Shown in pieces: positions 9,028 through 18,501 of a stretch of DNA of 20,258 nucleotides (positions within the stretch are counted from its first letter, which is position 1; the number at the start of each line of letters is the position of its first letter). A program made the position numbers and the translations under genes. This DNA is from a virus, in IMG/VR virus record IMGVR_UViG_3300027896_000283, positions 1 to 20,258 of that record. One strand, written 5' to 3'. The notes beneath the pieces were generated by a model, which saw only the letters and a program-made list of their open reading frames with translations, made no database searches and was not told the DNA's origin.

Positions 9028-9792
9028 CTATTTTTTAATACACCACATGTCCTGCGCCAAATTCGGATTTGTTATGTAAGCGAATGGTATTGTGAAGTAT
9101 CCATCAATTCCCCAATTTGGTCCCCAACTATTCCTAACCAAAAATGTTTTCGTTTCCATGTCATATCCGACAGCCAAAACCGCATGCCCCCCTTGGCAAA
9201 TTTCAGCAGAAGTTGGAAGATTCAAAATTCCGGTTTGAGCAACAGTCGGTCCCTCAAATTCAGAAAAAACGGAAAATCCAAATACAAATGGATATCCATC
9301 GGCTAAACAATGAATCATATCTTCAAATGAATTAATTCGTTGATATTCAGTTACTAGATGATTTTTTGCTGAATCGTAACATTCTATCAATGGTTTGTCA
9401 TTACATTTTTCTATTGAATATGGCCAAATTGATTCCCCACATGATCCAGACGAAACCAAAATTTTGATGGTATTTCGAATTGTTGCTCCACAATCTTGAC
9501 CCAAATTTCCCTCAAGTTCGCGAGTATTATAATAAACGAACAATCGACTCAAATCTTCAAATGAAGAACTGTTTCCCGCTTTTATTTCCAAATATTCGAG
9601 TGCACCAACGGATGCATTTGCAGTACAACTTCCGATTGAATATTGATTTTCTATCCGAGAGCACCACGGACGAAGATCGACCTTTTTTGGTAAATCGGAA
9701 AAATCCGGAGGAGATCCCAGTTTAAATATTTTATCTCGGTGATCTGTTAGATCGGGTTTCCATCCATATTTTGGTTTCGATGTACGTTTCAT
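9028..9792 (-). CDS. Papain-like C1 family cysteine peptidase
   Basis: A 254-residue cysteine peptidase of family C1. The active site is complete: Q50 (oxyanion hole) in ENQYSIGSCTANA, the nucleophile C56, H203 in GGHAVLAVGY, and N221 in VRNSWGPNWG. The entry sequence WKPDLTDHRD then VDLRP is that of bacterial and viral C1 enzymes with the GSCTANA signature. There is no signal peptide, and the stretch before the catalytic domain is only about 35 residues, so there is no long inhibitory propeptide. The protein probably acts inside the infected cell or in the virion. Possible roles are processing of phage proteins or cleavage of a host target, but context does not decide. A terminator precedes it. 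TATAAT-like boxes lie in the A/T-rich leader. Confidence 0.88.
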   Translation of the reverse strand: MKRTSKPKYGWKPDLTDHRDKIFKLGSPPDFSDLPKKVDLRPWCSRIENQYSIGSCTANASVGALEYLEIKAGNSSSFEDLSRLFVYYNTRELEGNLGQDCGATIRNTIKILVSSGSCGESIWPYSIEKCNDKPLIECYDSAKNHLVTEYQRINSFEDMIHCLADGYPFVFGFSVFSEFEGPTVAQTGILNLPTSAEICQGGHAVLAVGYDMETKTFLVRNSWGPNWGIDGYFTIPFAYITNPNLAQDMWCIKK

Positions 9793-13266: not shown

Positions 13267-15276
13267 TTATCCGTTTAGATCGGTGCCTATGTCATCACTC
13301 CGGAAACTGTTCCATTTTTTCTTTAGTTGAGATTTAGTATCATTTTCTTCGTCTTGCATCGTAGCTTTAATTTCAGCGGATTCTTTTGCCTTATCATCAT
13401 ATACTCGAATGTCTCCATTGCCAGCATTCATTTTAGCATATAAAGTAATTCCGTCCGGACCAAATCTATTTTTTATGACGTGAAATCTCGCAGTATTATT
13501 TGCCTTGTCATTTATCTTACGTGACATAGATAAGATAAAATCCGCCGTCATTATTTTCCGAAAAGAATCTGCTATATGTGTAGCGGTTACAATATCTTCT
13601 TCACTACCGCTTCTTGATACTTGTGATGCGGACCAAACGGGAAGTTTTAATTCTCCAGCCGCTCCACGTAATTCCTCATAAATATTTCCCATCGTGGAGT
13701 AACTATTGGCGTTTTTGTCTGACTCGGATGCTCGTAAAATATCAGCATAATCCACAATCATCAGATCAATTTTAATACCTTCAATTGTTTGGATTCGTTC
13801 AATGTGATTTTTTAATGATTGTGCACTAACAGTTTTAAGTGGGAAGTATTTAACAATCAACCTTCCTTTGAGATCTTTAATCTTATTTTTTACAATGTCG
13901 GCATTGTTACGAATATTCTGAAAATCTATGTGTGTAAAACAACAATCGTACCGTAACCCAACATAATTCTCATTCAACTCCAAAGTAAAATGTACTACAT
14001 TTTTTCCTTGTCGTATAGCTTCAGTTCCTATCTTTGCCAATACCCACGAATTATGAGATAAAATTCCATTTGAATAATAACAGTGAACATCTTCAACTGA
14101 AATATCATATAAAATTTGGGTGGTACCAAACGATTTGCGTTCCAATGTAGTCGTTCCGGTTTTTATTTCAACTAAATCATATGCGGTTATATCTTTTACT
14201 TTTTTCCAATTACCATCAACTTTTAATAAATGATGTTCCGATGTTTCTATAATAGATCCATCGTTAAAACTTGATATTACAGATTGTTGTTTTTCCGTGT
14301 GAAATGCAGTTACGATTTGCTTGAATCCGACCGGAGTATCTACATATAATGGAAATTGAACACTATATGTAGCATTTTCCTCACGTGCGATCTTAAGTAC
14401 ATCAAATAAATGTACCATAGTTACGACTTCAACTGAAATCTTTTTCTTGACTCCACGTTGTACATCGGACTTTAATTCCGATTTAAGTTTTTCAATCTCG
14501 AACAAAATATTATCTATTTGCCAACCAAATAGAAGTTTTCCACCGAAGTCAATCGTATCAAACGGCTTAAACCATATAACATATTCATTTCCAGAATTAC
14601 CGACGGTAGAAATTCCCGTTTCATAATATTGAATGGTTATTTCCGTATTTGGTCCAACACACTTGCCTGCTCCGGGAGGAGCGACGAATATTCCTAATTC
14701 TCCCGGCCCTAATCCACCGTCCATAAGTTTATCAATACATTCCCAGTTGGTTGGTACGGTTGCTCTACACATTTGACTCATACGAGCGTCGATTTCAACA
14801 TTATAATTGTGTCCCAGATTTCTTTCTGCTCCAGCTTTCATCGCATTATCGACCAATGTTTTGATGTGGTCATATTGCCCGGATTGCAAATGATCCACCG
14901 ACTCTAAAATTGCACTTTTCAATTTTTGATTTTTACAAAACTCCAAAAATTGTTCACGGACAAACACCAAATCCTTTTCGGTGAGTTTCATGTACACGCT
15001 CTTTAAATTCTCGATCACCGAAGATTTTAACGCGTCATTTGTTATAATATCAATTCTAATTTTGAACACACTTAAAGTTGGAAGTTCCTTATATTGGATA
15101 AAATAATCAATTGTTTCTTTTAAAATCCATTGATGTGCGTCAATTTCAAATGCTTTGATATCAATGATGTCAATAACTCGTTCGAGAAAATGTCGATCAC
15201 TTAATATCCCAGCAATAATTTTAGTTTGAAAGTCTAGACCAAACTTCCGTAGATTGTCTATAATAACAGGAGTCAT
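13267..15276 (-). CDS. 41: DnaB/gp41-like replicative helicase, intein-containing precursor
   Basis: A hexameric 5'-3' replicative helicase made as a 669-residue precursor with an in-frame intein at residues 206-409; after splicing it would be 465 residues, close to T4 gp41 (475). The N-terminal domain is helical (1-165). The RecA-like domain has Walker A APPGAGK (199-205) joined after splicing to SWVLAK (410-415), then HFTLEL (429-434, E433), Walker B IDLMIVDY (503-510, D509), the sensor SASQVSR (549-555, Q552), and a likely arginine finger in IKNRFGP (601-607). The start is the ATG at 15276, with no Shine-Dalgarno. It follows the exonuclease gene. A possible TTGACA promoter sits directly after that gene's stop codon. 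Confidence 0.9.
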   Translation of the reverse strand: MTPVIIDNLRKFGLDFQTKIIAGILSDRHFLERVIDIIDIKAFEIDAHQWILKETIDYFIQYKELPTLSVFKIRIDIITNDALKSSVIENLKSVYMKLTEKDLVFVREQFLEFCKNQKLKSAILESVDHLQSGQYDHIKTLVDNAMKAGAERNLGHNYNVEIDARMSQMCRATVPTNWECIDKLMDGGLGPGELGIFVAPPGAGKCVGPNTEITIQYYETGISTVGNSGNEYVIWFKPFDTIDFGGKLLFGWQIDNILFEIEKLKSELKSDVQRGVKKKISVEVVTMVHLFDVLKIAREENATYSVQFPLYVDTPVGFKQIVTAFHTEKQQSVISSFNDGSIIETSEHHLLKVDGNWKKVKDITAYDLVEIKTGTTTLERKSFGTTQILYDISVEDVHCYYSNGILSHNSWVLAKIGTEAIRQGKNVVHFTLELNENYVGLRYDCCFTHIDFQNIRNNADIVKNKIKDLKGRLIVKYFPLKTVSAQSLKNHIERIQTIEGIKIDLMIVDYADILRASESDKNANSYSTMGNIYEELRGAAGELKLPVWSASQVSRSGSEEDIVTATHIADSFRKIMTADFILSMSRKINDKANNTARFHVIKNRFGPDGITLYAKMNAGNGDIRVYDDKAKESAEIKATMQDEENDTKSQLKKKWNSFRSDDIGTDLNG
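14050..14661 (-). other. Intein in the helicase Walker A motif (204 residues)
   Basis: Residues 206-409 of the helicase precursor form a protein-splicing element between GAGK and S of the P-loop. It begins with the nucleophile C206 (CVGPNTEITI). It has the block B motif TSEH (345-348) in SIIETSEHHLLK, block F YDISVEDVHCYYSNG (390-404), and ends HN (408-409) followed by S410. No LAGLIDADG or HNH endonuclease motif is visible. The extra 65 or so residues relative to the two RecA inteins may be a linker or an endonuclease remnant. Confidence 0.9.
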
Positions 15277-16461: not shown

Positions 16462-18501
16462 TTAATCCTCCATTCCAGCACCGTCAGTATCAATATCAAT
16501 ATCATCTGACAGGGTTGAATCTGCCGATCTATATTTCATAATACATACGTCACACAATTTATTATATAGGAATTCTCTAACTTCCGACCGATTGTTCAAT
16601 AACGACGGAAAGTCTTTTTTCTCAAATCTTATGACTTCCGGTTCCTTACCATCTACCTCCAATATGAATTGAAGTGACTTTGCTTTTTTGTTGGCCTCCT
16701 TCTCATCTTCTATTTCTTTCTTCGTCTTCTTTTTTCCACCATCAACCTTTTCAGCTTTAGCATTTACTATGATGTCATGTTCCATCAAGTTTTCCAACCA
16801 ATTTCCATAGTTATCAATACCACGATCAAAAAAGATATTGAATGACGCCGATCTCATTGGTGGTCCCATTCTATTTTTGATGACGGTTGCCTTGGTTTTA
16901 ATTCCAATGACATCGTCGTCACCAATTTTTATTTTTCCTTCACCTTTGAGTCTAAGTCTAACGGATGCGTGGAATGCGAGTGCCTTTCCTCCTGAAGTTG
17001 TATTGTGATTATTTCTACCATTCGCTAAATAAGTCCCACCGTCAACTTCGATGTCTACAACTTTCATCGGGGAATTTACTAAGACAAATTCCGGATGATT
17101 TTTCAATGATATTTCCAGACCATTTTCCATAATACGATGTTCCGATGTTCCCAATAACTTTCCATCGGTATAATGAGAATCGACGGATGGTTTAACTACG
17201 AATGACAAGATGGATTTGTATCCCGTTGCTGTTAATACTTCGATTCCCTCACCCGAAAGATCCCACGCATTTGGTGTGGAGAAATCATTATTATACACAA
17301 ATCTTTGGGAGAAATCTTCCATCGTAATTTCTTCTTCTACGGGAAGTAGGATGTTTTCCGTTGGATTCTCAACATATCGAATTGTTATTTTTGTCGTAAA
17401 CGGATCTACGCAGAATTTATCACCATATCCAACAAAACCAATTTTTTCACGCAATTGATTAGTAAATACCAAACAAATTCGTTGTCGTGCAATCATCTCG
17501 GTTATTTTACGCATCGCCTTACTGATTGCTATGGCTTTGCCGGTAGCATATCCATCTACACCATGATCCGATGCCATTTCCTTGGTTGTTGAAGCTGCTG
17601 CGACGGAATCGACCAATATGGTTACTAACCGATTGTTACTCGCCTTTCTGACTTTTACTATAATGGATTCAATGTTATCAAAAATTTCTTCAATCGTATT
17701 TACGTTAACGTAAACCATCTTTTTGATATCCACGCCAATAGATGCGAGAAAATCCGGAGATACCGATGTTTCAGTGTCAATGAAAACGGCAACGCCACCT
17801 TTCTTTTGAGTTTCCGCTAATAAGTGTGCTCCCATCAAACTCTTACCGCTATTGTGATTCAATATTCCATTCCCATAATAACATTCTTCCGGATGTTCCA
17901 CTGAGATATCGACGATTGGAAATTCACCGATGTAATCTACTCGATCAACCAACTCAAATTTAGTCTTCTCCGTCATTATCTTTGTAACTCCCGGCGTCAG
18001 TTCTGAACACTTGATCCAACCAGAATTTGCATAGAATAAATGCTTCGCCGAGCACTTGATATTTTCGCCCGAGGACAGAACCACATAGTAGGTTTTTAGA
18101 ATTCCCTTTTCTATGTAGTTTGTTATTTTGGTGTATCCGCCTCCAACTGATAACACTCTTACGTCGGTCTTCTGTTCTAACAGTGTCTTGACGACCTTGA
18201 TGTCTATCTCTTTCTGTTGTACGTCAATAATTACTTTTATTTTTGTATCTTCTGTAACACATGCTTCTAAGCCAGTAATCTCTGAAATTCTGCCACTGGG
18301 GATTCCTCCATTCGGTCTATTTGAAATAGCCAAATCCAACATACTGTTTCCAGTTGAAATCCAATCGGTTATTTGCGATGGATCTTCTTCGTCCGTTAAA
18401 AAGAAAGCAATCTTACCTTTGTCTTTACTTTCCTTATTTAGTGCTTCCACCAATGAATCTGCCAATTCATCCTTGATATCGTCTGTCGTTTTTTTTGCCA
18501 T
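16462..18501 (-). CDS. uvsX: UvsX/RecA-family recombinase precursor with two inteins
   Basis: Strand-exchange recombinase filament protein, made as a 679-residue precursor with inteins at 81-217 and 364-500; the spliced protein would be 405 residues. The joined Walker A reads ITGLEA then SGKSLMG. The E of DTETS (242-246) fits the catalytic glutamate, VTILVDSVAA (293-302) is Walker B, and TNQLREKIGFVGYGDKF then TTSGGKALAFHASVRLRL is loop 2 and the following strand. The loop 2 region is closer to bacterial RecA (TTGG-NALKF-ASVR type) than to T4 UvsX. A lysine-rich insert lies at about 585-612, and the C-terminus is acidic (DDIDIDTDGAGMED). The gene lies between gp32 and the exonuclease gene. 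The leader has no Shine-Dalgarno. Confidence 0.9.
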   Translation of the reverse strand: MAKKTTDDIKDELADSLVEALNKESKDKGKIAFFLTDEEDPSQITDWISTGNSMLDLAISNRPNGGIPSGRISEITGLEACVTEDTKIKVIIDVQQKEIDIKVVKTLLEQKTDVRVLSVGGGYTKITNYIEKGILKTYYVVLSSGENIKCSAKHLFYANSGWIKCSELTPGVTKIMTEKTKFELVDRVDYIGEFPIVDISVEHPEECYYGNGILNHNSGKSLMGAHLLAETQKKGGVAVFIDTETSVSPDFLASIGVDIKKMVYVNVNTIEEIFDNIESIIVKVRKASNNRLVTILVDSVAAASTTKEMASDHGVDGYATGKAIAISKAMRKITEMIARQRICLVFTNQLREKIGFVGYGDKFCVDPFTTKITIRYVENPTENILLPVEEEITMEDFSQRFVYNNDFSTPNAWDLSGEGIEVLTATGYKSILSFVVKPSVDSHYTDGKLLGTSEHRIMENGLEISLKNHPEFVLVNSPMKVVDIEVDGGTYLANGRNNHNTTSGGKALAFHASVRLRLKGEGKIKIGDDDVIGIKTKATVIKNRMGPPMRSASFNIFFDRGIDNYGNWLENLMEHDIIVNAKAEKVDGGKKKTKKEIEDEKEANKKAKSLQFILEVDGKEPEVIRFEKKDFPSLLNNRSEVREFLYNKLCDVCIMKYRSADSTLSDDIDIDTDGAGMED
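17002..17412 (-). other. Mini-intein 2 in UvsX/RecA loop 2 (137 residues)
   Basis: Residues 364-500 of the precursor, inserted between GDKF and TTSGG. It starts at C364 (CVDPFTTKITI), has block B TSEH (452-455) in LLGTSEHRIMENG, block F VVDIEVDGGTYLANG (481-495), and ends HN (499-500) with T501 as the +1 residue. No endonuclease domain. The insertion lies in the DNA-binding loop 2. Confidence 0.88.
17851..18261 (-). other. Mini-intein 1 in the UvsX/RecA Walker A motif (137 residues)
   Basis: Residues 81-217 of the precursor, inserted between GLEA and SGKS. It starts at C81 (CVTEDTKIKV). Block B is IKCSAKHLFYANSGW (148-162), with S151 in the usual threonine position before H154. Block F is IVDISVEHPEECYYGNG (196-212), and it ends HN (216-217) with S218 as the +1 residue. 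No endonuclease domain. Confidence 0.88.

What the first reader, a model, noticed from the sequence alone, without database searches (positions are those of the whole stretch)
17002..17412. Second 137-residue mini-intein in the same recombinase, at DNA-binding loop 2
One recombinase gene carries two inteins, and the second blocks loop 2, the DNA-contact loop. So both ATP binding and DNA binding depend on splicing. Both inteins are exactly 137 residues by my count but differ in sequence, so this does not look like a recent duplication. Two endonuclease-free inteins in one small gene is unusual and raises the question of how they persist.
Basis: partly seen in the sequence, partly recalled or inferred. 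Interest (0 to 1): 0.65.

Follow-up and report, generated by a model that had tools for sequence, protein, structure and literature searches.

The report
Re-fused split intein in phage recombinase
A self-removing protein insert sits in the DNA-binding loop of a phage recombinase; its closest relatives are encoded in two pieces with a DNA-cutting gene between them, so this one looks like a two-piece insert that lost the cutter and was rejoined into one piece.

Summary
Window 17002-17412 (-) encodes a 137-residue class 1 mini-intein (Cys1, T89-x-x-H92, Asp120, His136-Asn137, +1 Thr) in loop 2 of a UvsX whose Walker A motif carries a second, unrelated 137-residue intein. AlphaFold gives a confident HINT fold (pLDDT 95; Z 15.7 to PI-PfuI, 14.8 to VidaL).

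The window intein's sister (L193, 100/97 support) is split 15+122=137, so the window copy matches an end-to-end fusion at the split point with the HEG gone. The gp41 intein in the same phage shows the same thing. HEGs are site-specific clades that track their inteins, some relatives are still split with a truncated or deleted HEG, and a single origin of the contiguous forms is rejected (p=2e-5). I read this as recurrent reversal of gene fracture: split+HEG, then split without HEG, then fused mini-intein.

The equal 137 lengths are coincidence. Two HEG-free inteins, or P-loop plus DNA-loop inteins, have precedents. Splicing is untested.

The parts
16462..18501 (-). uvsX gene carrying two contiguous mini-inteins (679-aa precursor, 405-aa spliced UvsX)
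17002..17412 (-). intein 2 (137 aa), inserted in loop 2: ...GYGDKF | C...HN | TTSGG...
17368..17412 (-). part of intein 2 that aligns with the separate 15-aa Int-N fragment of split relatives (CVDPFTTKITIRYVE)
   Evidence: L193 Int-N is CVDPVTTKIKIRYKK-stop
17002..17367 (-). part of intein 2 that aligns with the separate 122-aa Int-C ORF of split relatives (L193 MNTEQNNQYIEEE...)
17851..18261 (-). intein 1 (137 aa), inserted in Walker A: GLEA | C...HN | SGKS
14050..14661 (-). intein 3 (204 aa), contiguous, in Walker A of gp41 helicase (GAGK | C...HN | SW); relatives are nearly all split with an HEG in the gap
14458..14661 (-). part of intein 3 matching the separate Int-N of split gp41 relatives (mostly 57-74 aa there)
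14050..14457 (-). part of intein 3 matching the separate Int-C ORF of split gp41 relatives
13267..15276 (-). gp41-like DnaB-family helicase gene holding intein 3

Best explanation
Window 17002-17412 is a class 1 (Cys1 / HN-Thr) mini-intein inserted in DNA-binding loop 2 of UvsX. It splices in cis and must be removed for loop 2 to be rebuilt. It descends from an atypically split intein of the 'fractured gene' kind, in which uvsX was broken into uvsX-N plus a 15-aa Int-N, an EDxHD/Vsr-like homing endonuclease gene, and a separate Int-C plus uvsX-C ORF. In this phage lineage the endonuclease gene was deleted and the two ORFs were joined in frame at or next to the old split point (15 + 122 = 137 residues), turning trans-splicing back into cis-splicing. 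The gp41 intein of the same phage went through the same change. Shown: anatomy, conserved residues, predicted fold, split relatives with HEGs, sister relation to a split form, HEG-loss intermediates. Inferred: that it splices, that the order was split to fused, and that it persists because only a precise excision from the conserved loop would leave a working UvsX.
For:: class 1 intein residues at both ends; H92, D120, H136, N137 invariant across 23 members. AF2 pLDDT 95, pTM 0.87; VIA Z 15.7 (PI-PfuI), 14.8 over 117 residues (VidaL); Foldseek top hits are the naturally S1-split PolB16 intein; split kin with Int-N of the type CVDPFTTKVKIRYKV-stop, a roughly 0.9-1.1 kb HEG spacer, then a separate Int-C ORF; window intein 2 is sister to split L193 (100/97), and the window gp41 intein lies inside a split clade (97/99); uvsX-site HEGs and gp41-site HEGs are each one clade (100/100). 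HEG and intein distances agree (Mantel r 0.57 and 0.81, p=0.0002), so HEG and split intein descend together; one clade of contiguous loop-2 inteins rejected (p-AU 2.4e-5); intermediates L003 (HEG C-terminal remnant), L207 (109-nt spacer), L211 (539-nt), L221 (53-nt), L231 (41-nt; about 867 nt lost relative to L007 at a shared GCATA). HEG family by match to I-Bth0305I structure 3r3p and a weak Vsr match; codon-position differences 37/24/82 against L193, so the intein is under purifying selection.
Against: The direction split-to-fused rests on tree nesting and HEG congruence; deep branches of the loop-2 tree are weakly supported. For gp41, a tree with the window outside its 7 closest split kin is not rejected (p-AU 0.097). 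No loop-2 locus pair shows the fusion step itself at near-identity. Nothing tests splicing. The window and L002 are identical over the overlap and may be the same population, so the fused form at these coordinates rests on one phage (plus 6 other contiguous lineages in the tree).
Confidence: 0.83

Rival explanations
1. The contiguous form is ancestral: the window keeps an old mini-intein, and EDxHD endonuclease genes later invaded such inteins and split them (the published direction).
For: This is how split inteins are said to arise (PMC11766414, citing Dassa 2009). Seven contiguous loop-2 members exist and the deep tree is weak.
Against: Contiguous forms are scattered (p-AU 2.4e-5 against one clade). 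HEGs at each site are one clade that tracks the inteins, so repeated separate invasion at the same point is unlikely. HEG-loss intermediates exist. The window intein is sister to a split form. A first, older contiguous-to-split event is not excluded and is probably true.
Confidence: 0.12
2. The insert is not functional: a non-splicing domain or decayed intein tolerated in the loop, with precursor UvsX active or replaced by another recombinase.
For: No splicing data; profile libraries do not recognise it.
Against: All catalytic positions are intact, the fold is confident and third-position substitutions dominate. The loop and Walker A are both broken unless splicing occurs.
Confidence: 0.04
3. 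Assembly artefact: a chimera joined two halves of a split gene.
For: The window is a metagenomic contig; relatives are split at this very point.
Against: A second contig (IMGVR 3300003852_000094) is identical over the region. The join is in frame with several unique junction residues, and the same phage shows it at a second gene. Six further contiguous lineages have different junctions.
Confidence: 0.02

Closest known systems
'Fractured gene' split inteins with a Vsr-like/EDxHD homing endonuclease (Dassa et al. 2009; cited in PMC11766414, PMC13014065; original not readable here)
   Same: Sister sequences have exactly this layout: N-half, endonuclease gene, C-half, in a T4-type replication gene
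   Different: The window copy is one ORF without the endonuclease gene
Atypically split S1 inteins: VidaL (16-aa Int-N) and PolB16 OarG (15-aa Int-N) (PMC13014065, PMC10189870)
   Same: Relatives split after beta strand 2 with 15-aa Int-N; model superposes on VidaL (Z 14.8) and PolB16 (Z 12.2)
   Different: Window copy contiguous; Cys1/Thr+1 instead of Ser/Ser of PolB16; only about 15-18% identity
Two inteins in M. smegmatis DnaB, one in the P-loop, one in the DNA-binding loop (PMC6195587)
   Same: Same functional pair of sites in one RecA-fold ATPase
   Different: There one intein keeps an endonuclease and one is class 3; here both are HEN-free and the protein is a phage recombinase
Two mini-inteins in P. 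abyssi Cdc21 (PMC6801210)
   Same: Two endonuclease-free inteins in one gene, one in the P-loop
   Different: No split or HEG-linked relatives at the site are described in the passages read

Membership tests
Class 1 intein (HINT) | Cys/Ser at position 1 | tested here: met
   Cys364 of the precursor; Cys in all kin with N-half known
Class 1 intein (HINT) | Block B TxxH | tested here: met
   T89-S-E-H92; H92 invariant in 23 rows, T sometimes S
Class 1 intein (HINT) | Penultimate His, terminal Asn, +1 Cys/Ser/Thr | tested here: met
   H136-N137 then Thr
Class 1 intein (HINT) | HINT fold | tested here: met
   model pLDDT 95; Z 15.7 to 1dq3, 14.8 to 6vgv
Class 1 intein (HINT) | Protein splicing activity | not testable with these tools
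   needs expression
Mini-intein | No endonuclease domain | tested here: met
   137 aa, whole length aligned to HINT domains
Fractured-gene split intein | Two halves on separate ORFs | tested here: not met
   single 679-aa ORF; met in sister L193 and others
Fractured-gene split intein | EDxHD/Vsr-like HEG between halves | tested here: not met
   absent in the window; present in L193 (3r3p E=6.7e-4, DUF559) and others
S1 atypical split intein (as ancestor) | Split directly after beta 2, Int-N about 15 aa | tested here: met
   kin Int-N mostly 15-20 aa (28 in L207); window junction at residue 15/16, between strands 8-14 and 24-30 of the model
UvsX/RecA recombinase (host protein) | RecA core with Walker A and loop 2 | tested here: met
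   PF00154, phrog_97; joined extein 405 aa

The most novel reading that the evidence does not exclude
Gene fracture by split inteins is reversible and cyclic in phages: split+HEG inteins in uvsX and gp41 repeatedly lose the HEG and re-fuse at the old split point into ordinary-looking mini-inteins, so some natural mini-inteins are former split inteins.
Probability: 0.72. Interest if true: 0.66.

Novelty: new variant of a known kind. Interest (0 to 1): 0.58.

Why it matters
Reviews describe split inteins as the product of endonuclease invasion into contiguous inteins, and mini-inteins as the product of endonuclease-domain loss (PMC11766414, PMC8966425). This family suggests a further route, from split back to contiguous, with each intermediate still present in sequenced relatives, so the intein life cycle can be tested on natural sequences. 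It also supplies natural 15-aa Int-N fragments with matched natural fused versions, which would let one compare cis and trans splicing of related inteins.

Tried and rejected
Pfam, NCBIfam and PHROGs scans do not recognise intein 2; phmmer against PDB gave only chance GroES matches. No match in 50,697 phage isolate records for the window intein or three relatives' sequences from this site; none in bacterial and archaeal genomes. The idea that the equal 137 lengths mean a shared origin was rejected: intein 1 aligns with gp41 inteins, and intein 2's length is the sum of 15 and 122. The first AF2 run with 8 rows was poor (pLDDT 71); adding contiguous and split kin fixed it. Dassa 2009 is not in the library, so whether it already lists a loop-2 UvsX intein is not known here; from memory a 'VidaL UvsX-2' split intein has been named, not verified.

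Full report
Observation. The ORF at 16462-18501 (-) encodes a 679-aa UvsX. It carries two 137-residue inserts, 81-217 in Walker A and 364-500 in loop 2; removing both leaves a 405-aa UvsX with intact motifs. Insert 2 (17002-17412) begins with Cys, has T89-S-E-H92 and ends H136-N137 before Thr. Across 23 relatives H92, D120, H136 and N137 are invariant. AlphaFold with these relatives gives pLDDT 95 and pTM 0.87. The model aligns over its whole length to inteins: PI-PfuI Z 15.7, VidaL 14.8, Mtu RecA 13.4, gp41-1 12.7, PolB16 12.2; Foldseek ranks PolB16 first. It is a class 1 mini-intein by every test available. Splicing itself is not tested.

Site occupancy. Eighty UvsX loci found through the extein between the two sites all have an uninterrupted loop 2, and none has a Walker A insert. 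The nearest exteins (L008-L014, 75-79%) are empty at both sites. Intein 1 has no relative apart from the same phage's second contig and is distantly related to gp41 helicase inteins.

The key finding. Relatives of intein 2 are mostly split. In L003, L004, L006, L193, L197, L203-L205, L210, L212, L216, L218 and others, uvsX-N ends with a short Int-N such as CVDPFTTKVKIRYKV-stop. A gene of about 280-370 codons follows, then a separate ORF starting M..YIEEE (or similar) and running through ...LNHN|TTSGG into the C-extein. The middle gene matches the EDxHD homing endonuclease I-Bth0305I in L193 (3r3p, E=6.7e-4), and Vsr weakly in L004 (E=4e-4, below cut-off) (family described in PMC3943268). This is the 'fractured gene' layout, with the S1 atypical split site known from VidaL and PolB16 (PMC13014065, PMC10189870). 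The window's sister, L193 (66% identity, support 100/97), is split as 15 + 122 = 137 residues. The window intein is 137 residues and aligns end to end with the two halves laid together, the Int-C start Met replaced by Asn.

Second case in the same phage. The gp41 helicase intein (14050-14661, 204 aa) is contiguous, while 22 of the 24 rows in its tree are split with the same kind of layout. The window lies inside a clade with seven split forms (97/99). L011 (empty) and L168 (split intein plus HEG) have identical gp41 exteins over the compared region, as expected from recent homing.

Direction. (a) HEGs at the uvsX site form one clade and those at gp41 another, both 100/100. (b) Distances among HEGs agree with distances among their inteins (Mantel r 0.57 and 0.81, p=0.0002), so HEG and split intein descend together. 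(c) Contiguous loop-2 inteins are scattered; holding them as one clade is rejected (p-AU 2.4e-5), and their junctions differ in length and sequence (132-151 aa in total; L201 has a Met where the split relatives' Int-C starts). (d) Intermediates exist: L003 gp41 keeps only an 80-residue HEG remnant; L231 has lost about 867 nt relative to L007 at a 5-nt repeat (GCATA) and is still split; L221, L207 and L211 are similar. Together these favour split+HEG, then HEG loss, then in-frame fusion. An older contiguous-to-split event is not excluded. For gp41 a tree with the window outside its close split kin is not rejected (p 0.097).

Mechanism. Precursor UvsX has an interrupted P-loop and an interrupted loop 2; each intein is expected to excise by the class 1 pathway and ligate its exteins (inference from the residues). 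UvsX itself is needed for phage homing in T4 (PMC2988022), so such inteins sit in a protein that drives their own spread. The HEG-free copy probably persists because only a precise deletion from a conserved loop leaves a working UvsX (the argument made for phage introns and inteins in PMC2988022). Purifying selection on the intein fits this.

Comparison. What seems new is the repeated passage from split back to contiguous; the current account is the opposite direction (PMC11766414). I could not read Dassa 2009 and do not claim priority.

Noticed in passing
L201:1055-4089 and L219:1821-4957: A second intein site in loop 2 only seven residues upstream: uvsX-N ends LG|CVNPETT..., a zinc-finger-bearing putative HEG follows, then the C-half ends SHN|TSFGDPY| directly before a contiguous member of the window's intein family. 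A 7-residue extein lies between two inteins, and UvsX is made from two ORFs with two splicing events.
   Followed up: partly
L011:7759-9066 and L168:2209-5095: Identical gp41 exteins over the compared region, one empty and one with the split intein plus HEG: a natural homing pair.
   Followed up: partly
L102:8417-10795: Ribonucleotide reductase interrupted after TSNLC by an intein N-half, followed by a gene resembling a GIY-YIG endonuclease (YIIYMHTIFEKSYIGYTSKS): a further candidate fractured gene with a different endonuclease type.
   Followed up: no
L006:4908-5948: A second EDxHD-like endonuclease gene (GTYWHLDP) free-standing after uvsX, not inside an intein.
   Followed up: no
window 17851-18261: Intein 1 in UvsX Walker A has no relative elsewhere in viral contigs and is distantly similar to gp41 P-loop inteins (HHalign 97%), which hints at movement between P-loop genes.
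   Followed up: partly
window 14050-14661 and split gp41 kin: The gp41 intein N-half carries an extra roughly 50-residue segment (EYVIWFKPFD...FGWQIDNILFEIEKLK) not seen in ordinary mini-inteins; it could be a fragment-association element kept after fusion.
   Followed up: no
window 9028-9792: Papain-like cysteine protease-type ORF (CTANA...GGHAVLAVGYD...RNSWG) in a phage replication region.
   Followed up: no
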